In this document: positions 9,705 to 18,789 of the stretch, in pieces | Numbering within the stretch: the first letter of the stretch is position 1 | Layout: each line of letters begins with the position of its first letter | Assembly (NCBI RefSeq): GCF_030167915.1 | Contig: NZ_JARGNB010000002.1 | Coordinates: forward strand, 558,001 to 622,000 | DNA: 64,000 bases | Direction: 5' to 3' | Source of the DNA: Aquabacterium humicola | GTDB lineage: Bacteria; Pseudomonadota; Gammaproteobacteria; Burkholderiales; Burkholderiaceae_C | Notes under the pieces: generated by a model | The model's input: only the letters and a program-made list of their open reading frames with translations | Database searches by the model: none | What the model was told of the DNA's origin: nothing | Translations under genes and position numbers: made by a program

Positions 9705-9730
9705 CAATTCAATTGTGTGCAATTTAAATT
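9705..9730. promoter_or_regulatory. Candidate OhrR operator / ohrR promoter region
   Basis: An unusually AT-rich patch with overlapping palindromes: CAATTCAATTG (9705-9715, one-base centre), ATTGTGTGCAAT (9712-9723) and AATTTAAATT (9721-9730). Characterised OhrR sites in other bacteria contain AATT-rich inverted repeats, so this is the likely operator. It lies 19-44 bases upstream of ohrR and also 57-82 bases upstream of the divergent kinase. Confidence 0.7.
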
Positions 9731-9786
9731 CCGAGACCCTGCGGCGCGCAGGGTCGAAGCCGGACGGTCAGGCGCAGACTGTCGCC

Positions 9787-11936
<2,150 letters not shown>

Positions 11937-11949
<13 letters not shown>

Positions 11950-12935
11950 CGCAGCGCCAGCGTGCGGTAGGTCTGCGCCAGCGCCTCGCGCAACGCGGGC
12001 GGCGCGAGCACCTCGCCATCGTTGCCCAGGCGCAGCAGCTGGCGCGATGCGTGCGCGACCGACTCGATCGGCAGCGTGACCTCGATGCACCCTTCGTGGG
12101 TGGCGCTCGGCTCGGCGCTGTCCAGCGCCGCAGCGGCGATCACCGGGCTGAAGCCCTGCACGGTCTTGAAGCCGGCCTCGTTGATCCGCAGACGCGCGGT
12201 GCCGCTGTAGACGCCGGCTTCGAAGCGGGCAGTCTCGCGCGCCCACCACGCGGCGAGGTCGAAGCCGCGCGGGCGTTCGAACAATTGATCCAGCGCTTGC
12301 AGCGACAGGATCGCCGACAGGCGGTAGACGTGCGGCTCGCGGCCGCGCGTGGCGTCGCGGGCCGGATCGGGGGCGCTGCGCGCGGCCATGTACCAGGTGC
12401 CGGCCTTCAGCACCACGCCGAGCGGTTCGATCACGCGTTCGCTGACGCCGTTCCAGCTCTCGTAGCGCATCGCCAGCCGCTGCGCATGCCAGACGGCTTC
12501 GGCCACCGCCTGCAGGTGCAGCGGCGGCACGGCGCTGCGGAACCAGTCGATCGGGTCGAGGTGGAAGCGCGCGGCCACCTGCTGCGCATCGGCCTGCCAG
12601 TCCGACGGCAGCGCGGCCAGCAGCTTCAGCTGGGCGGTGGCCATCGCTTCGCCGAGGCCGAGCTCGGCTGCCGGCCCCGGCAGGCCGGCCATGAAGATCG
12701 CGCGGGCTTCGGGCACCGTCAGCCCGGTGAGCTGGGTGCGCCAGCCTTCGCGCAGCTGGAAGCCGCCCGAGCGGCCGGGCTCGCCCCACACCGGCACGCC
12801 GGCGGCACTGAGCTGGTCGATGTCGCGGTAGACGGTGCGCACCGACACCTCCATCTGCCGCGCCAGCGCGGGCGCGCTCTGCCGGCCGCGGGTCTGCAGC
12901 AGCATCAGGAGGGTCAGCAGGCGGCTGGCGCGCAT
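11937..12935 (-). CDS. WYL-domain transcriptional regulator (YafY/DeoR-type HTH)
   Basis: A 332-residue regulator. The N-terminus has a DeoR-like helix-turn-helix, [17 protein letters not shown] then [20 protein letters not shown], followed by the G-rich wing [16 protein letters not shown]. The middle contains the WYL module ([17 protein letters not shown]), which binds nucleic acid or small ligands, and a C-terminal WCX-like part. The family often represses a divergent neighbour; here the neighbour is the NIPSNAP gene 112 bases away, the probable target. The start at 12935 is where the HTH begins. The ligand is unknown. Confidence 0.9.
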
Positions 12936-13047
12936 TCGGGGTGCGGTATGGCGTGGAACGGGCGCCAGTGTCGCCGCAAATACTGACATGCGGTGGCAGG
13001 CTTGGCGGCGCAGCATCGCCGGCCATGAACCTGCACAGGAGAGTGAC

Positions 13048-13719
13048 ATGCTGACTTCCACGACCGTGCTGCCGCCGGTGATCGAGCTGCGCCAGTACAC
13101 GCTGCACCCGGGCCGGCGCGACGAACTGATCGAGCTCTTCGAGCGTGAACTGCTGATGCCGCAGCAGGACTGCGGCATGCGGCTGCTTGGCCAGTTCCAG
13201 GACCTCGGCGATCCGGACCGCTTCGTCTGGCTGCGCGGCTTCGCCGGCATGCCGCAGCGCGCGCAGGCACTCGCCGATTTCTACGGCGGCCCGGTGTGGC
13301 ACGCGCACCGCAGCGCGGCGAACGCGACGATGATCGATTCCGACAACGTGCTGCTGCTGAAGCCCGCGCTGCCGGTGCCGACGCCGGCGAAGCTCGGCAG
13401 CGGCCGCGTGGTCTGCACGATCTGTCCGCTGCGCGCGCCGCCCGACGAGGCGCTGCGGGCGCGCCTTCGCGACGGCGTGCTGCCGCAGGTGGCCGCGGCC
13501 GGCGCGACCCCGCTGGCGGTGCTGGAGACCGAGCCCGCGACCAACACCTTCCCGCGCCTGCCGGTGCGCGAAGGCGAGCAGGTGCTGGTTTGGCTGGCCT
13601 CGGTGCGCGACGACAAGCCGTGGCCGGTGCTCGACGTCGGCGGGCTGCTGGATCGCTGGCTGCGCGACCTGCCGATCACGCTGCACCTGCGCGCGACGCC
13701 GCGCTCGGCTTGGCGCTGA
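13048..13719 (+). CDS. NIPSNAP family protein
   Basis: A 223-residue soluble protein with two copies of a dimeric alpha/beta-barrel fold: the first begins VIELRQYTLHPGRRDELIEL and runs through FVWLRGFAGMPQRAQALADF, the second covers about residues 115-215 and is less conserved. NIPSNAP proteins resemble antibiotic-biosynthesis monooxygenase folds, but no catalytic role is established. GGAGA lies 8 bases upstream of the ATG at 13048. It is divergent from the WYL regulator, a common pairing, and is probably controlled by it. Its 3' end is where the candidate direct repeat flanking the STAND gene begins. Confidence 0.85.
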   Translation: MLTSTTVLPPVIELRQYTLHPGRRDELIELFERELLMPQQDCGMRLLGQFQDLGDPDRFVWLRGFAGMPQRAQALADFYGGPVWHAHRSAANATMIDSDNVLLLKPALPVPTPAKLGSGRVVCTICPLRAPPDEALRARLRDGVLPQVAAAGATPLAVLETEPATNTFPRLPVREGEQVLVWLASVRDDKPWPVLDVGGLLDRWLRDLPITLHLRATPRSAWR

Positions 13720-13725
13720 AGACGC
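13712..13725. repeat. Left copy of a 14-bp direct repeat flanking the STAND gene
   Basis: GGCGCTGAAGACGC here and GGCGCCGAAGACGC at 16751-16764 differ at one position and bracket the DUF4062-STAND gene. The left copy overlaps the NIPSNAP stop codon. It also pairs, in part, with AGCGTCTT at 13749-13756 (AAGACGCT at 13719-13726) to make a possible hairpin. The repeat could be an integration scar or chance in GC-rich DNA. Confidence 0.4.
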
Positions 13726-13799
13726 TCATTTAAAACGATAGGAATGGAAGCGTCTTACTGGCTTGGTTGTGGACTGCACGCGGCTGGACTGAAGGCGCT

Positions 13800-16682
13800 T
13801 CACTCGGCACCGGCCAGCCAGCGACGCGTGTCGTGGGCGTCAGGATGGCGGATGCGTTCGCGCACTGCCAGTGCTTGCTGGAACGCGCGCTGCGCGAGTT
13901 CAGGCTGACGCAGCGCGTGGAAGGCCTCGCCCCAGACCTGCGCGGCATCGGCTTCTCCCCAGGCGTATTGGCACTCCTTTGCCGTCGCAAGGTCGAGTGC
14001 TTCGCGGGCGGCGGAGACGGCGGCCGCCGCGTCGGGCCATGCGAGGCGGATGCGGGCTAGGAGCACCAGCAACTCAATCAGTAGCAGGCGGAAGCCGCAG
14101 GTGCGCGCTTGCAGGATGCCGGCCTCGACCTCGGCCAGCGCGCCGGTGAGGTCACCGCGGTTCAGTGCATCCTGCGCGGCGAGTTGGTGGGCAGTGATGA
14201 TCAATTCCATGTCACCAGTGCGTGCCGTCCATGCACGGACATCGGTCAGGTGGGCATGGGGGTCGGTGCGTTCTGCCAGCGCGAGTCTGGCCAGGAGGCT
14301 GTCCCACATGGGCAGCTCGATGTTCCAGCCGCCGCTTCTTGCACGCTGACGGCCTCTGTCGATCAACGCCCTTGCTTGTGGCAGGTCCCCAAGGTCGAGC
14401 CGATGCCGAGCTTGTTGGGCCCCGCGCAGCGAATACAGCATCAAACCGCCGTGTTGAAGCTCAGTGGCCGCTGCGAAACTGTTCTCTGCAGCGTCAATGT
14501 CGCCGAGTGCATGGAACGTTGTCGCGCGCGCAGACAGCGAATTCAATCGGAGTTCAACGTTCCCTGCAAGTTCGGCTCGATCAAGCGCTTCTGCGGCCAG
14601 CAGCGCAGCCTCCGGCAGCAGGCCGAGTGCGGTCGCCACTTCGTTGGAGTTGCGCAGTCCGATCGACGCTTCCTTTGCATCCCGTTGGCGTGCGCAGTAT
14701 TCATCGTCGGCTTGACGCAGAGTCCAAGACTCATTCAACCGTCCCAACCTTCTCGACCAGAGCGCCAGGTCGGCGACGCAAACGAACCGATCACGTTCGG
14801 TAAGGCGTTCGTCGCCGACACGCTGTGGATGGTTCGGGCTAGCAAACGCTGACACTATGCGGTAGCCGCGGGCGAACTCGCCGAGAACCTTGCCAAGATG
14901 GTCATAGCCCTCCAAACCAAACCAGTACAAATCGAACGCTTCTCTTACCCGACCGGATAGGCGGATGGCCTCGATCAATTGCTCGTAGCGATCGAGCATC
15001 GCGGTCTCCCGTGGCTTCACGTGAGGGCGCTTGTCGAGACCGCGGCCTAACGTGCTGGCGACGACTCCGAACACCTCCGCCGGCGAGCAGCCCAACAGCG
15101 TCGCGAAGCGCTCACGCAGGAACGGATGGGCGGTCCAGGTCAGCGTGTTGTCCGCACCGTCGTAGCTGAACACCAGCCCGCGCTGCTTCAGACGCTGCAG
15201 CAGCGCCAACAGGCGCGTCCGCGCGTTCACCAGGACGCCGGCCGCCGCACCGCCGGCATCGACCAGGGTACCCAGCAACTCCAGCGTGATGCCGCGCGGA
15301 AATACCGACAGGCGCACGAGCAGGTCCCGTTCTTCAGCTGGAAGGCGTTCGGCGTAGTAGGCGAGGACGCGGGCGAGCTTGCCGGCCCTCGGATCGTCGC
15401 CGGTGACCTCGTCGAGATTGAATTCGGTGACTGCTTCCACACGCCCGTCGGCGATGAAGGATTGCAGGTACGAGCCGATCACTGCCACCGACAGCGCATG
15501 GCCGCCGACCTGGCGTACCACCGCGTCGAGTTGTTCGTCCGTCCCGGTCGCGTTCCAACTCCGCAGTAGCGCGCGTCCGGCCGTGACATCGAGGTCGTCC
15601 AGCGCCGTGCTGGCAAATCCGTTGCGTTGCCAGTCCTGCAGGTCGACGAGCGGGAATCGCGAAGTCACCAACGCCCGCGCACGACCCAGCCCCGCAGCCA
15701 ACGATTGCAGCAGCAGCTTGACTTGATGGTCCTCCAGTTCGCCGCGCACGCGCCCGGCACCCGCCTCGGCCTGCACGCGCTCTAGCCCATCCAGCACGAT
15801 CAGGTGCGGGCGACCGTCACGTAGGCCGCGTTGCAGCCGTTCGAGGCGGCCGCCGACGGGCTGGCCGTCCTCTTCGCCGAGAAAGAGGTGCGCGCACTCG
15901 CGCAGGAAGGCGTCGCTGTCCGGCCGCTCGTAGAACGACCAGACCAGCACGCCAGCCAGCCCGGGCTGCAGGCGGCGCACCACCTGTTCGATGACCGCCG
16001 TTTTCCCGGTACCACCAGCGGCGACCAGCGCATGCACGCGGTCCGGCGAGGCCAGGTCCGCGGCCCACGCTGTCAGCCGCTCGACCAGCGCATCACGGCC
16101 GGTGAAGTGCGGCGCCGGCTGAAGCGCGTGCACGATGCGAATCTCCGCGACACGAGGCGCTGAAGCACTCGCACTGCTCGGGCCTGCCGTGCGCAACGCT
16201 GTCGCGATCTTGCGGCCCAGGTCGTCGGGCGTCGTGAAGGACTCGCACACGACGTGCTGCTGCAGCCACTCTTTAAACTCGCCGAGCGCCTTGACCGCCT
16301 TGACGACTTCCTGGATCTTGGCCGGGTCAGCCAGCGTCGCCGGATCGTTGAGGCGATCTGTTTCCTTCGCCGCGGTCCACGGATGCTTGTCGTCGACGAT
16401 CCAGGCCAGTACCGCCTTGCCGGCTGCATGCGCTGCTTCGACTTCCCGCCGCGTGATGCTGCCGCGGCCGGCCTCGGGCTCGAAACCGTTGCGATGCGCG
16501 ACGATGCACACCAGCACGTCGCACGCCGCCGCCAGCCGTTCGCACTCGTCGACCGGCCTACCCGGCTGCGGCCCGAAGCGCTCCATCACCACCGACTGTT
16601 GCTGTAGTCGCAGCATGGTGTCGTCCGCGACTCGCCGGTGTTCGGCAAGGTCCAGCGCCGTGGAAGACAAGAAGATCTTCAT
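13800..16682 (-). CDS. DUF4062-STAND NTPase-helical repeat protein (NLR-like)
   Basis: A 960-residue multidomain protein. Residues 1-95 match DUF4062, a TIR-like Rossmann module (MKIFLSSTALDLAEHRR, then MERF, SITRREVEAA). A linker leads to HFTGRDALVERL and an NB-ARC-type STAND ATPase: Walker A GGTGKT (223-228), Walker B LIVLDG (294-299), a TSR motif at 340-342 and GGHALSVAVIGSYL (393-406). A winged-helix part (about 440-520) precedes a long helical TPR-like C-terminus (about 540-960). The architecture is that of nephrocystin-3/NWD1-like and bacterial NLR-like sensors: ligand sensing by the repeats, ATP-driven oligomerisation, activation of the N-terminal domain. G+C in sampled C-terminal lines is 50-58 %, well below neighbours. 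No partner gene. A defence role is inference. Confidence 0.88.
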   Translation of the reverse strand: MKIFLSSTALDLAEHRRVADDTMLRLQQQSVVMERFGPQPGRPVDECERLAAACDVLVCIVAHRNGFEPEAGRGSITRREVEAAHAAGKAVLAWIVDDKHPWTAAKETDRLNDPATLADPAKIQEVVKAVKALGEFKEWLQQHVVCESFTTPDDLGRKIATALRTAGPSSASASAPRVAEIRIVHALQPAPHFTGRDALVERLTAWAADLASPDRVHALVAAGGTGKTAVIEQVVRRLQPGLAGVLVWSFYERPDSDAFLRECAHLFLGEEDGQPVGGRLERLQRGLRDGRPHLIVLDGLERVQAEAGAGRVRGELEDHQVKLLLQSLAAGLGRARALVTSRFPLVDLQDWQRNGFASTALDDLDVTAGRALLRSWNATGTDEQLDAVVRQVGGHALSVAVIGSYLQSFIADGRVEAVTEFNLDEVTGDDPRAGKLARVLAYYAERLPAEERDLLVRLSVFPRGITLELLGTLVDAGGAAAGVLVNARTRLLALLQRLKQRGLVFSYDGADNTLTWTAHPFLRERFATLLGCSPAEVFGVVASTLGRGLDKRPHVKPRETAMLDRYEQLIEAIRLSGRVREAFDLYWFGLEGYDHLGKVLGEFARGYRIVSAFASPNHPQRVGDERLTERDRFVCVADLALWSRRLGRLNESWTLRQADDEYCARQRDAKEASIGLRNSNEVATALGLLPEAALLAAEALDRAELAGNVELRLNSLSARATTFHALGDIDAAENSFAAATELQHGGLMLYSLRGAQQARHRLDLGDLPQARALIDRGRQRARSGGWNIELPMWDSLLARLALAERTDPHAHLTDVRAWTARTGDMELIITAHQLAAQDALNRGDLTGALAEVEAGILQARTCGFRLLLIELLVLLARIRLAWPDAAAAVSAAREALDLATAKECQYAWGEADAAQVWGEAFHALRQPELAQRAFQQALAVRERIRHPDAHDTRRWLAGAE

Positions 16683-16776
16683 CGCCGCGATCGTAGCGAC
16701 ACGACTGTCGCAAGGCATCAGCCGTTCAGTCGAAGGTGTCGCTCAGCCAGGGCGCCGAAGACGCGTCGCGGCAGAT

Positions 16777-18789
16777 TCAGCCGGCCGCGTTGATCGCCTC
16801 GATCTCGCTCTGCAGCTCGAGCCAGCGCTCTTCGAGCATCGCGGTCTCGGCGGCGATGTGGTTCAGGCGCCGGCCGTGCTCGGCGATCTCGGCGCCCGCC
16901 AGCGAGCCGGTGGCCAGCGCCGCCTCGAGCTCGGCGCGCTCGGCGCCGAGCTTCTCGAGCCGCTCGTCGATCTGCTGCACTTCCAGCCGCAGCGGCCGCG
17001 TGCGGTTGGCGATCGCGGCGCGGTTCTGCGCGGCCTGCTTGCGGTCGTCGCGGCGGTTGCTGTCGGCGGCGGGCGCGGCTTTCGGCGCAGCGGTGGCGGA
17101 CGTGGCCTTGGGTGCAGCGCCGGCCGGCGCTGGCGCCGGCGCGGCGCTCGGTGTGCCCGGCAGCGGCGGCGCCGGCTGGCCCTTGGCCGCGGCGCGTGAA
17201 ACGTCCAGCAGCCAGCGCTGGTAGTCGTCGAGGTCACCGTCGAAGGGCTTGACGCCGCCGGCGGTGACCAGCCAGAACTCGTCGCACACTTCGCGCAGCA
17301 GCGCGCGGTCGTGGCTCACCAGCATCACCGTGCCCTCGAACTCGTTCAGCGCGATCGACAGCGCCTCGCGCGTCGTCAGGTCGAGGTGGTTGGTCGGCTC
17401 GTCCAGCAGCAAGAGGTTCGGCCGCTGCCAGACGATGGTCGCCATCACCAGCCGCGCGCGTTCGCCGCCCGAGAGCGTGCCGACCTTCTGGTGCACCATG
17501 TCGCCGGTGAAGCGGAACTGGCCGAGGAAGTCGCGCAGCGCCTGTTCTCGCGCTTCCTGGGCATTGGGGGGCGACACATCGCGCGCCAGCCGCACCATGC
17601 GCTGCAGCGGCGTGTCGTCTTCGCTCAGCAGGTCGAGTTCCTGCTGCGCGAAGTAGCCGATCGCCAGGCCCTTTCCCTCGGTCAGCGTGCCGCCCAGCGG
17701 GGGCAGCGCGTGGGCGATGGTCTTCACCAGTGTCGACTTGCCCTGGCCGTTGGCGCCGAGGATGCCGATGCGCTGGCCGGCGAGCACGGTGCGCTCGACG
17801 TTGCGCACGATCGCGGTACTGCCGTAGCCGCAGACGAGGTCGCGCATCGACAGCATCGGGTTCGGCAGGTTGCCGGGCTCGCGGAACTCGAAATCGAAGT
17901 CGCTCGCGGTGAGCACCGGCGCCAGCTTCTCCATGCGGGCCAGCGCCTTGACCCGGCTTTGCGCCTGCTTGGCCTTGGTGGCCTTGGCCTTGAAGCGGTC
18001 GATGAAGTGCTGCAGGTGGGCGATCTTCTCCTGCTGCTTCGCGTAGGCGGCCTGCTGCTGCGTGAGGCGCTCGGCGCGCATCTCCTCGAAGGTGGTGTAG
18101 TTGCCGCCGTACCGCGTCAACGACGCGTTATCGAGGTGCACCGTGACGCCGGTCACCGCGTCGAGGAACTCGCGGTCGTGGCTGATGATCACCAGCAGCC
18201 CGGCGTAGCGCTTGAGCCAGCCTTCCAGCCAGACCAGCGCGTCGAGGTCCAGGTGGTTGGTCGGCTCGTCCAGCAGCAGCAGGTCGGCCGGGCACATCAG
18301 CGCGCGCGCCAGCTGCAGGCGCATGCGCCAGCCGCCGGAGAAGCTGTCGACCGGCGCGTCGAGCTGGTCGACGCGGAAGCCCAGGCCCAGCAGCAGCGAC
18401 TGCGCGCGTGAGCGGGCATCGAAGGCGCCGGCGTGCTCGAGGTGCATGTGCGCGTCGGCGATCGCATGGCCGTCGCCCGAGGCTTCGGCCTCGGCGAGCA
18501 CCGCGCGCGCCTCGACCAGCGGCAGGTCGCCGTCGAGCACGAAGTCGGTCGCCGCCTGGTCGGTCTCCGGCATCGACTGCGCGACCTCGCCGATGCGCCA
18601 GCGCGGCGGCATCTCGACGTCGCCGAGGTCGGCATGCAGGCGGTTCGCGAGCAGCGAGAAGAGGGAGGACTTGCCGGCGCCGTTGCGGCCGATCAGGCCG
18701 ACCTTCTCGCCGGGATTCAGCGTGACGCTGGCGTCCTGCAGCACGACCTTGGCGCCACGGCGCAGGGTCACGTTCCGGATCGAAATCAT
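16777..18789 (-). CDS. yheS: ABC-F family ATPase (YheS-like translation factor)
   Basis: A 670-residue soluble protein with two ABC ATPase domains and no membrane segment. Domain 1: Walker A GLIGRNGAGKSS, signature FSGGWRMRLQLA, Walker B LLLLDEPTNHLD. The inter-domain linker (KAKATKAKQAQSRVKALARM) is the ABC-F hallmark that reaches the ribosomal peptidyl-transferase centre. Domain 2: ILGANGQGKST, LSGGERARLVMA, LLLLDEPTNHLD. An Ala/Pro-rich spacer leads to a C-terminal coiled coil (LEVQQIDERLEKLGAERAEL). YheS-type proteins relieve stalled translation. The start overlaps the prmB stop (ATGA), so it is the last gene of the dap cluster. Confidence 0.9.
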   Translation of the reverse strand: MISIRNVTLRRGAKVVLQDASVTLNPGEKVGLIGRNGAGKSSLFSLLANRLHADLGDVEMPPRWRIGEVAQSMPETDQAATDFVLDGDLPLVEARAVLAEAEASGDGHAIADAHMHLEHAGAFDARSRAQSLLLGLGFRVDQLDAPVDSFSGGWRMRLQLARALMCPADLLLLDEPTNHLDLDALVWLEGWLKRYAGLLVIISHDREFLDAVTGVTVHLDNASLTRYGGNYTTFEEMRAERLTQQQAAYAKQQEKIAHLQHFIDRFKAKATKAKQAQSRVKALARMEKLAPVLTASDFDFEFREPGNLPNPMLSMRDLVCGYGSTAIVRNVERTVLAGQRIGILGANGQGKSTLVKTIAHALPPLGGTLTEGKGLAIGYFAQQELDLLSEDDTPLQRMVRLARDVSPPNAQEAREQALRDFLGQFRFTGDMVHQKVGTLSGGERARLVMATIVWQRPNLLLLDEPTNHLDLTTREALSIALNEFEGTVMLVSHDRALLREVCDEFWLVTAGGVKPFDGDLDDYQRWLLDVSRAAAKGQPAPPLPGTPSAAPAPAPAGAAPKATSATAAPKAAPAADSNRRDDRKQAAQNRAAIANRTRPLRLEVQQIDERLEKLGAERAELEAALATGSLAGAEIAEHGRRLNHIAAETAMLEERWLELQSEIEAINAAG

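What the first reader, a model, noticed from the sequence alone, without database searches (positions are those of the whole stretch)
13800..16682. Solitary NLR-like DUF4062-STAND-repeat protein, candidate defence or stress switch
Domains are visible in order: TIR-like DUF4062 (residues 1-95), NB-ARC/STAND ATPase with GGTGKT, LIVLDG, TSR and a GxxLS motif (about 215-410), winged helix and a long helical-repeat sensor (about 540-960). This is the layout of animal NPHP3/NWD1 and of bacterial NLR-like proteins that sense phage. It has no partner gene, differs in base composition from its neighbours and sits between ordinary metabolic genes, as single-gene defence systems often do. Function is inference.
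Basis: partly seen in the sequence, partly recalled or inferred. Interest (0 to 1): 0.85.

Follow-up and report, generated by a model that had tools for sequence, protein, structure and literature searches.

The report
Lone bacterial immune-receptor-like NADase gene
This single gene encodes a bacterial counterpart of plant and animal immune receptors, with a predicted NAD-destroying head, an ATP switch and a helical sensor, and it has the gain-and-loss history expected of a defence gene although its function is untested.

Summary
In detail: window 13800-16682, minus strand, is a 960-aa protein with an N-terminal DUF4062, an NB-ARC-like STAND ATPase, a winged helix and a helical-repeat tail. 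A 2026 preprint (PMC13174449) shows DUF4062 is a TIR-like NADase in the anti-phage protein KpSwz and in human TEP1. By profile alignment E80 falls on their catalytic Glu and is invariant in 27 of 27 DUF4062 domains aligned. The gene is accessory: low GC3; no full-length copy in 20 genus mates; it replaces other genes between conserved flanks in the nearest mate; and a deleted ~320-bp relic sits in another. Near-full-length relatives (44-62% identity) were found in five other genomes, mostly Acidobacteriota; the four with readable flanks have different neighbours. Related ATPases carry TIR, nuclease-like or other heads, and one protein joins this clade's DUF4062 to another ATPase, so the head behaves as an exchangeable effector. 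Against defence: no PADLOC match among ten orthologue neighbours tested, and three of four human DUF4062-ATPase proteins were inactive as NADases. Most likely it is an NLR-type abortive-infection switch, a Swarozyc-type head on an Avs/NLR-type body. Function untested.

The parts
13800..16682 (-). DUF4062 - NB-ARC-like STAND - helical-repeat protein, 960 aa
   Evidence: ORF; Pfam; AlphaFold2
16389..16682 (-). DUF4062, TIR-like domain, residues 1-98 (predicted NADase effector)
   Evidence: Pfam 2e-12; profile of 27 DUF4062 domains matches KpSwz 4e-23 and TEP1 1e-10; NDT/TIR fold
16443..16445 (-). codon of E80, predicted catalytic glutamate (column of KpSwz E97 and TEP1 E1008)
   Evidence: invariant in 27 of 27 DUF4062 domains; alignment to the solved chains, numbering by counting
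16491..16493 (-). codon of R64, column of TEP1 R976
   Evidence: invariant in 6 of 6 orthologues, not invariant in the wider set of 27; alignment
16131..16388 (-). linker, residues 99-184 (helices, then low-confidence stretch 169-175)
15423..16130 (-). NB-ARC-like STAND NTPase, residues 185-420
   Evidence: AAA_22; NRC1 NB-ARC Z 21.7 and Apaf-1 Z 23.8
15999..16016 (-). Walker A GGTGKT, residues 223-228
15780..15794 (-). Walker B LDGLE, residues 297-301
15657..15665 (-). TSR, sensor-1-like, residues 340-342
15006..15422 (-). helical and winged-helix region, residues 421-559
   Evidence: AlphaFold2 secondary structure; NRC1 match spans 189-533 and Apaf-1 spans 179-648
13806..15005 (-). TPR-like helical repeats, residues 560-959, predicted sensor
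   Evidence: residues 601-958 are 47-51% identical to the four closest orthologues, against 71-74% for effector and NTPase
16723..16751 (-). 29-bp remnant of the 3' end of a zinc-ribbon gene that is intact in genome G015
   Evidence: 26 of 29 identical at the collinear place; 0 of 20,000 shuffles and 0 of 20,000 random window stretches reach this
16777..18789 (-). upstream flank: ABC-F ATPase, found in 20 of 21 genomes of the genus, own included
12835..13719 (+). downstream flank: convergent NIPSNAP-family gene (start uncertain)
   Evidence: similarity to G015 resumes at its stop codon

Best explanation
It is a single-gene NLR-type immune switch. At rest the ATPase, winged helix and repeats hold the N-terminal DUF4062 inactive. 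The repeat tail binds an unknown invader product, most likely a conserved phage structural or packaging protein. That triggers nucleotide exchange and oligomerisation of the NB-ARC-like core, which packs the TIR-like heads together. The heads then hydrolyse NAD+ through E80 and stop the infected cell (abortive infection). Shown here by comparison: the domain order, the conserved ATPase motifs, the position of the catalytic Glu, accessory gain and loss, and exchange of heads on this ATPase type. Inferred: NADase activity of this protein, oligomerisation, the trigger, and the phage-defence outcome.
For: (1) Architecture and fold. Foldseek's top match for the whole model is the STAND-TPR protein PH0952 (6mfv, 8e-14; TM-score over the query only 0.30, so domains match but not their arrangement). 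The core aligns with Apaf-1 (Z 23.8, 5.0 A over 417 residues) and the NRC1 NB-ARC (Z 21.7, 4.3 A over 321 residues). (2) Effector. A profile of 27 DUF4062 domains matches KpSwz (4e-23) and the TEP1 TIR domain (1e-10). The predicted domain aligns with nucleoside hydrolases such as DNPH1 (Z 13.1, 2.6 A over 120 residues) and with TIR domains (SARM1 Z 12.0, 3.4 A over 130 residues; SPARTA and RPP1 Z 10-11.5). E80 falls in the column of KpSwz E97 and TEP1 E1008, and R64 in that of TEP1 R976 (PMC13174449). (3) Effector exchange. Related STAND proteins carry TIR_2 (L081, L093, L019, L020), a head matching PADLOC's endonuclease-effector model (L071, L018) or its PDC-M28B model (L027). In genome G240 ATPases 86-90% identical carry DUF4062, the KGGVGR head, or no head in their own frame. 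L096 has a DUF4062 63% identical to the window's and an ATPase only 33% identical. (4) Gain and loss. Different neighbours at the four orthologues with readable flanks; full-length in 0 of 20 genus mates; replacement relative to G015; decayed relic in G008; GC3 0.762 against 0.895-0.972. (5) The repeats diverge more than effector and ATPase, as a sensor would. (6) A relative, L069, lies in one stretch with a TIR-STAND gene and a SIR2_2 gene.
Against: No experiment. Neighbours of the close orthologues are ordinary: 10 of 10 ORFs tested had no PADLOC match (some of these ORFs, picked by my script, may be wrong frames). Three of four human DUF4062-ATPase proteins (NWD1, NWD2, NPHP3) showed no NADase activity in vitro (PMC13174449), so the fold and the Glu do not guarantee activity. 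The window has N65 where most DUF4062 domains have the Y of RYG. The best single fold match of the head is a nucleotide hydrolase, slightly ahead of TIR domains. TEP1 R908 is not conserved (L10 here), nor in KpSwz (by counting). No full-length copy was found on phage or plasmid records or, by exact peptide patterns, on viral contigs. No promoter-like site was found, though the scan covers sigma-70 type only. The count of head changes on the ATPase tree (9, against 10.3 for shuffled labels) is not by itself evidence of anything.
Confidence: 0.65

Rival explanations
1. A STAND switch with a non-defence job: it senses a host metabolite, stress or damage product and uses the TIR-like head to lower NAD+ or make a signal, giving programmed dormancy, cell death or kin discrimination.
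For: STAND proteins with such helical repeats also regulate physiology: MalT domain III is among the better fold matches to the repeats (Z 26.2, behind eukaryotic TPR proteins up to 29.8). The close orthologues sit among ordinary genes without PADLOC matches. L096 lies between genes that look by eye like glycolysis genes.
Against: Rare and patchy: among 396 sampled genomes of the phylum of G335 only G335, the centre of the search, has a full-length copy (the genomes of the other orthologues were not reported in that sample) and 0 of 20 genus mates does. Loss and head exchange fit arms-race genes better than housekeeping sensors.
Confidence: 0.2
2. The DUF4062 head has lost catalysis and serves as an oligomerisation or adaptor domain, as may hold for human NWD1, NWD2 and NPHP3; any output is by recruitment of another protein.
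For: Those three human proteins were inactive in vitro (PMC13174449). Window N65 departs from the common RYG.
Against: E80 and R64 are kept in 6 of 6 orthologues. The effector is as conserved as the ATPase. Relatives of this ATPase carry heads of enzyme families.
Confidence: 0.1
3. A STAND transcription regulator of the MalT/AfsR kind.
For: AfsR and MalT are among sequence or fold matches to the later part of the protein.
Against: No DNA-binding domain was found at either end; the N-terminus is a TIR/NDT-like domain.
Confidence: 0.02

Closest known systems
Swarozyc (KpSwz, PDB 10wc/11cq/11cv; PMC13174449)
   Same: DUF4062 TIR-like head with the catalytic Glu; patchy spread by horizontal transfer
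   Different: KpSwz is a 326-residue chain in the PDB with a stalk and a winged portal-binding AUX domain; here the head sits on a nearly 800-residue NB-ARC-like ATPase and helical-repeat body
Avs / AVAST STAND NTPases (for example Avs5, passages of PMC12931631)
   Same: N-terminal effector, central STAND ATPase, C-terminal repeat sensor; Avs5 also depletes NAD+
   Different: no match to any PADLOC-DB 2023 model (that Avs models are in it is recalled); head is DUF4062, not SIR2 or nuclease; core matches NB-ARC folds, and nSTAND3 is not listed at E up to 1
Human TEP1, NWD1, NWD2, NPHP3
   Same: DUF4062 directly before an ATPase and further repeats
   Different: NACHT ATPase, with WD40 repeats in several; TEP1 is a vault component. 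The window's own genome has a closer layout match, DUF4062 - ATPase-like - WD40 (L068)
TIR-NB-ARC plant NLRs (RPP1) and the STAND-TPR protein PH0952 (6mfv)
   Same: TIR head on an NB-ARC core (RPP1); STAND core with TPR sensor (PH0952)
   Different: the plant sensor is LRR (recalled); PH0952 is another lineage, 13% identical in the aligned part
bNACHT proteins
   Same: bacterial NLR-related anti-phage receptors
   Different: no NACHT match in the window protein at E up to 1

Membership tests
STAND / NLR-type switch | P-loop NTPase with Walker A and B and a winged-helix extension | tested here: met
   A221, G223, G224, G226, K227 and L297, D298, G299, E301 invariant in 20 of 20 rows; fold match to Apaf-1 and NRC1
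STAND / NLR-type switch | N-terminal effector and C-terminal superstructure-forming repeats | tested here: met
STAND / NLR-type switch | ligand-triggered nucleotide exchange and oligomerisation | not testable with these tools
   needs protein
NB-ARC subfamily | match to Pfam NB-ARC (PF00931) | tested here: inconclusive
   not listed for the window protein at E up to 1; relative L071 matches at 1.1e-6; the fold matches NB-ARC proteins
DUF4062 (TIR-like NADase) | DUF4062 domain with the catalytic Glu of KpSwz E97 / TEP1 E1008 | tested here: met
[quoted passage not shown]
   needs an assay
Swarozyc | DUF4062 followed by stalk and winged AUX domain, compact protein of the KpSwz kind | tested here: not met
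   960 aa with an ATPase and repeats in place of stalk and AUX; KpSwz chain is 326 residues
Swarozyc | activation by phage portal | not testable with these tools
   needs co-expression
Avs / AVAST | match to a PADLOC model of the family | tested here: not met
   0 PADLOC families at E up to 1
Avs / AVAST | sensing of a conserved phage protein by the repeat domain | not testable with these tools
   needs phage challenge
bNACHT | NACHT domain (PF05729) | tested here: not met
   not among matches at E up to 1 for the window protein
Animal NWD1/TEP1/NPHP3 layout | DUF4062 followed by a NACHT-type ATPase | tested here: not met
   DUF4062 met, but no NACHT or NPHP3_N match for the window protein at E up to 1
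MalT/AfsR-type regulator | DNA-binding domain at one end | tested here: not met
   none in Pfam at E up to 1 or seen in the model

The most novel reading that the evidence does not exclude
This is one clade of a little-recognised class of bacterial NLRs that pair the Swarozyc/TEP1 NADase head with an NB-ARC-like ATPase and helical-repeat sensor. Such genes travel alone into gaps between housekeeping genes, swap heads with TIR-, nuclease- and other-headed relatives, and are lost by internal deletion. Searches guided by defence islands would miss them, and DUF4062-ATPase-repeat receptors like animal NWD1 and TEP1 would have a live bacterial model.
Probability: 0.4. Interest if true: 0.75.

Novelty: new variant of a known kind. 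Interest (0 to 1): 0.62.

Why it matters
DUF4062 was reported as an NADase in a 2026 preprint, from compact bacterial Swarozyc proteins and human TEP1. How a DUF4062 head is controlled by an ATPase and a repeat sensor is open; the authors say they speculate about it for TEP1. A 960-residue bacterial protein with all three parts in one chain makes that testable: head (E80), switch (K227) and sensor can each be disabled in laboratory E. coli. It would also add a kind of solitary defence gene that lies outside defence islands.

Tried and rejected
Core gene: rejected, since no full-length copy was found in 20 genus mates (six of them are under 90% complete). Four of the 20 gave partial matches: G007, G011, G017 (DUF4062 domain; in G007 the match ran to residue 300) and G008 (the relic).

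Known family by single-sequence search: no PADLOC family at E up to 1, three NCBIfam matches far below their cut-offs, no PDB chain at E up to 1. Only profile searches reached KpSwz and TEP1; a single-sequence search of the N-terminal 165 residues did not.

Phage or plasmid cargo: no match in 50,697 phage records, two partial matches among 72,556 plasmid records, none in viral contigs by exact peptide patterns.

Flanking direct repeats or a target-site duplication: the repeats found were short or imperfect and I saw none that bracket the gene convincingly. Shared flanking DNA among orthologues: none at E up to 0.01 in flanks of up to 600 bp. Sigma-70 promoter: none found.

Defence island: 10 neighbour ORFs of L010, L011, L013 and L014 gave no PADLOC match at E up to 0.01; one of them, in L014, is a PIN-domain protein. 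Of eight window neighbours, five gave PADLOC hits that I judge generic: ABC-F against ABC ATPase models (best mad3 1e-45), the WYL regulator (WYL 3e-36), the kinase (SduA 1.5e-5), the MarR regulator (Csa3 2e-4) and the ORF over the methyltransferase (mad2 1e-14); three gave none. PADLOC-DB 2023 is older than the Swarozyc report.

First impression that the G008 matches were chance: rejected, because they are three collinear DNA blocks. A DNA search of 299 family genomes found only the window's own copy; the part listed does not show whether G008 was among them.

Swarozyc membership was rejected because the AUX body is missing. Supplementary Fig. S1D of PMC13174449, which may show bacterial DUF4062-ATPase proteins, was not held, so I do not claim that the layout is unreported. 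My searches for DUF4062 terms (seen as listings) showed nine and three papers; by title and abstract only PMC13174449 is about DUF4062 function in bacteria.

Dropped or uncertain rows: rows under 45% identity were left out, and 4 of 13 genus loci (L061, L064, L066, L067) show no MarR gene in the stretch held. In one search the row labelled 'none' from L070 has an overlapping TIR ORF just upstream in another frame, so it may be a TIR-STAND gene with a frame change. L012 is cut at a contig end and sits on a 3.2-kb MAG contig, so its assignment to Betaproteobacteria is weak. Two searches scored only two candidates per genome.
Full report
Observation. The gene lies at 13800-16682 on the minus strand and encodes 960 residues. 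Pfam gives DUF4062 at 2-84 (2e-12, above its cut-off), AAA_22 at 215-306 (8e-7, above cut-off) and sub-threshold TPR matches. PADLOC and the PDB by single sequence give nothing at E up to 1, and NCBIfam gives three matches far below their cut-offs. AlphaFold2 with a 36-row alignment made only of window and fetched-locus proteins gives mean pLDDT 89 and pTM 0.75. The order is an alpha/beta domain (1-166), an NTPase (about 190-410), a helical and winged-helix part (to about 530) and helical repeats (about 560-959).

Fold. The best Foldseek match of the whole model is PH0952, a STAND protein with a TPR sensor (6mfv, E 8e-14, TM-score over the query 0.30). In the second look with VIA-align the core aligns with Apaf-1 (3sfz, Z 23.8, 5.0 A, 417 residues, model 179-648) and with the NB-ARC of plant NRC1 (8bv0, Z 21.7, 4.3 A, 321 residues). 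The repeats align with many TPR proteins (best 8jal, Z 29.8, 3.7 A, 391 residues) and with MalT domain III (Z 26.2, 3.9 A, 324 residues). The N-terminal 165 residues predicted alone (mean pLDDT 91.9) align with DNPH1 (Z 13.1, 2.6 A, 120 residues), SARM1 TIR (Z 12.0, 3.4 A, 130 residues), and SPARTA and RPP1 TIR domains (Z 10-11.5). The domain is thus TIR/NDT-like.

The effector. PMC13174449 (bioRxiv, May 2026; I read the first two of six text parts, the discussion and the figure legends; supplement not held) reports that DUF4062 is a TIR-like NADase. In K. pneumoniae the compact protein KpSwz (system Swarozyc) protects against phages by NAD+ depletion and is activated by the phage portal; this needs E97. 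Human TEP1 hydrolyses NAD+ through E1008, while NWD1, NWD2 and NPHP3 did not. A profile of 27 DUF4062 domains that I aligned matches KpSwz chains in the PDB at 4e-23 and the TEP1 TIR chain at 1e-10. In that alignment the invariant Glu column (window E80) falls on chain residue 84 of KpSwz, an alanine. Counting from a construct that begins at residue 15 with one extra residue, this is position 97, and the solved construct was E97A. In TEP1 it falls on chain residue 115, which is 1008 if the 220-residue chain ends at 1113; the spacings to R976 (window R64) and R908 (window L10) agree. These numberings are my counting. E80 is invariant in 27 of 27 domains; R64 is invariant in the 6 orthologues but not in the 27.

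Relatives. The one scan of genome contigs found five loci with near-full-length relatives: L010, L011, L014 and L013 (Acidobacteriota MAGs by their titles) and L012 (betaproteobacterial MAG, cut at a contig end), 44-62% identical to the window protein. This scan uses exact short peptide patterns, so the count is a lower bound. In 396 sampled genomes of the phylum of L010's genome, 7 had any match at 1e-30 and only L010's own genome, the centre, had a full-length one. In 300 genomes of the window's order 12 had a match at 1e-10, and the window's own genome alone aligned over the full model. Domain identity to the four closest orthologues is 72-73% for DUF4062, 71-74% for the NTPase and 47-51% for the repeats.

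Exchange of heads. Other proteins with this ATPase type carry TIR_2 (L081, L093, L019, L020), a head matching PADLOC's endonuclease-effector model (L071, L018) or its PDC-M28B model (L027). L105 has an N-terminus that I recognise by eye as class III cyclase-like; Pfam did not report it at E up to 0.001. On a tree of 20 ATPase plus winged-helix regions the six orthologues form one well-supported clade, and the sister group mixes heads; six head labels need 9 changes where 5 is the minimum, but shuffled labels gave 10.3 on average and were as low in 33 of 200, so the count alone proves little. Single cases are stronger. In genome G240 ATPases 86-90% identical carry DUF4062, the KGGVGR head, or no head in their own frame (an overlapping TIR ORF lies just upstream of the last). 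L096 joins a DUF4062 63% identical to the window's to an ATPase only 33% identical. In L069 a DUF4062-STAND gene lies in one stretch with a TIR-STAND gene (PADLOC ThsB 1e-23) that overlaps a SIR2_2 gene.

Gain and loss. None of 20 genus mates has a full-length copy (14 are at least 90% complete). The ABC-F flank is found in 20 of 21 genus genomes, the window's own included. In the closest by that gene, G015 (93% identity), the flanks ABC-F and NIPSNAP-WYL-kinase are the same, but an 877-bp segment with a zinc-ribbon gene and a 180-aa ORF stands where the window has 3,056 bp with this gene. Similarity stops at the ABC-F stop codon on one side and resumes at the NIPSNAP stop codon on the other. 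The window keeps 29 bp of the zinc-ribbon 3' end (26 of 29 identical) at the collinear place, matched by 0 of 20,000 shuffles and 0 of 20,000 random stretches; no zinc-ribbon match was found elsewhere in its genome (no positive control). So the common ancestor probably had the zinc-ribbon gene and the window's lineage replaced it; the zinc-ribbon gene was not found in the other 12 genus loci fetched. The ABC-F to MarR interval is variable in the genus: in the 9 of 13 fetched loci where both are seen it measures from 93 bp to 5.1 kb, and 7.1 kb in the window (window coordinates). In G008 three collinear blocks of the gene (nucleotides 160-230, 1709-1826 and 2747-2847; 72.5-79% identity) lie side by side in 322 bp, a relic with two large internal deletions. 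The window gene has GC3 0.762 against 0.895-0.972 for seven nearby genes.

Against. The four orthologues with readable flanks have different and, by Pfam or by eye, ordinary neighbours, and 10 of 10 neighbour ORFs tested have no PADLOC match (some may be wrong frames). No phage, viral-contig or full-length plasmid copy was found. Three of four human DUF4062-ATPase proteins were inactive in vitro (PMC13174449). The general description of STAND immune proteins as effector, ATPase and repeat sensor is taken from passages of PMC12931631 and PMC10907252.

Judgement. The architecture and the NLR-like logic are well supported; a catalytically able head is likely (about 0.75); a role against phages or other invaders is the best single explanation (0.65) but untested. 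It is not Swarozyc in the strict sense, nor an Avs or bNACHT by the models tested. It is a new variant that joins a known head to a known kind of body. I cannot say the layout is unreported, because the supplementary architecture figure of PMC13174449 was not available.

Noticed in passing
L068:8320-12246 (G000 contig 42): The window's own genome encodes a second DUF4062 protein (Pfam match) of 1308 aa, with a P-loop ATPase-like middle by eye and a long WD40 array that matches TEP1 propeller models: the layout of animal NWD1/TEP1 in a bacterium.
   Followed up: partly
L116:4070-4391 (G008 contig 191): A 322-bp relic of the DUF4062-STAND gene with two large internal deletions, between genes that look by eye like parC/vapC and acyl-CoA dehydrogenase.
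   Followed up: yes
L096:6476-9325 (G335): A DUF4062-STAND gene sits between genes that look by eye like pgk and tpiA, in a gap-pgk-tpiA cluster; its DUF4062 resembles the window's but its ATPase does not.
   Followed up: partly
L069:8589-18930 (G240): DUF4062-STAND, TIR-STAND and SIR2_2 genes in one stretch, the last two overlapping by 4 bp: a possible defence cluster of NAD-targeting proteins.
   Followed up: partly
L099:5000-7633 and L099:9517-12354 (G336): Two DUF4062 - NACHT/NPHP3_N proteins close together, one with a C-terminal FGE-sulfatase domain of the kind found in DGR-diversified sensors; presence of a DGR was not checked.
   Followed up: no
L071:6347-10402 (G316): A nuclease-headed STAND gene and a RhuM-Fic gene lie within what looks by eye like an ABC efflux operon.
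   Followed up: no
window 9722-16777 and L055-L067: The interval between the ABC-F gene and a MarR-type regulator is a variable spot in the genus, from 93 bp to 7.1 kb with different contents.
   Followed up: partly
L112:2-4951 (G336 contig 279): Two TIR-STAND genes in tandem, identical over the 330 N-terminal residues printed, fill a 5-kb contig; real duplication or assembly artefact not decided.
   Followed up: no
L013:38-466: A short ORF with a weak class III cyclase match (0.0011) lies directly upstream of the DUF4062-STAND orthologue in a Bryobacterales MAG.
   Followed up: no
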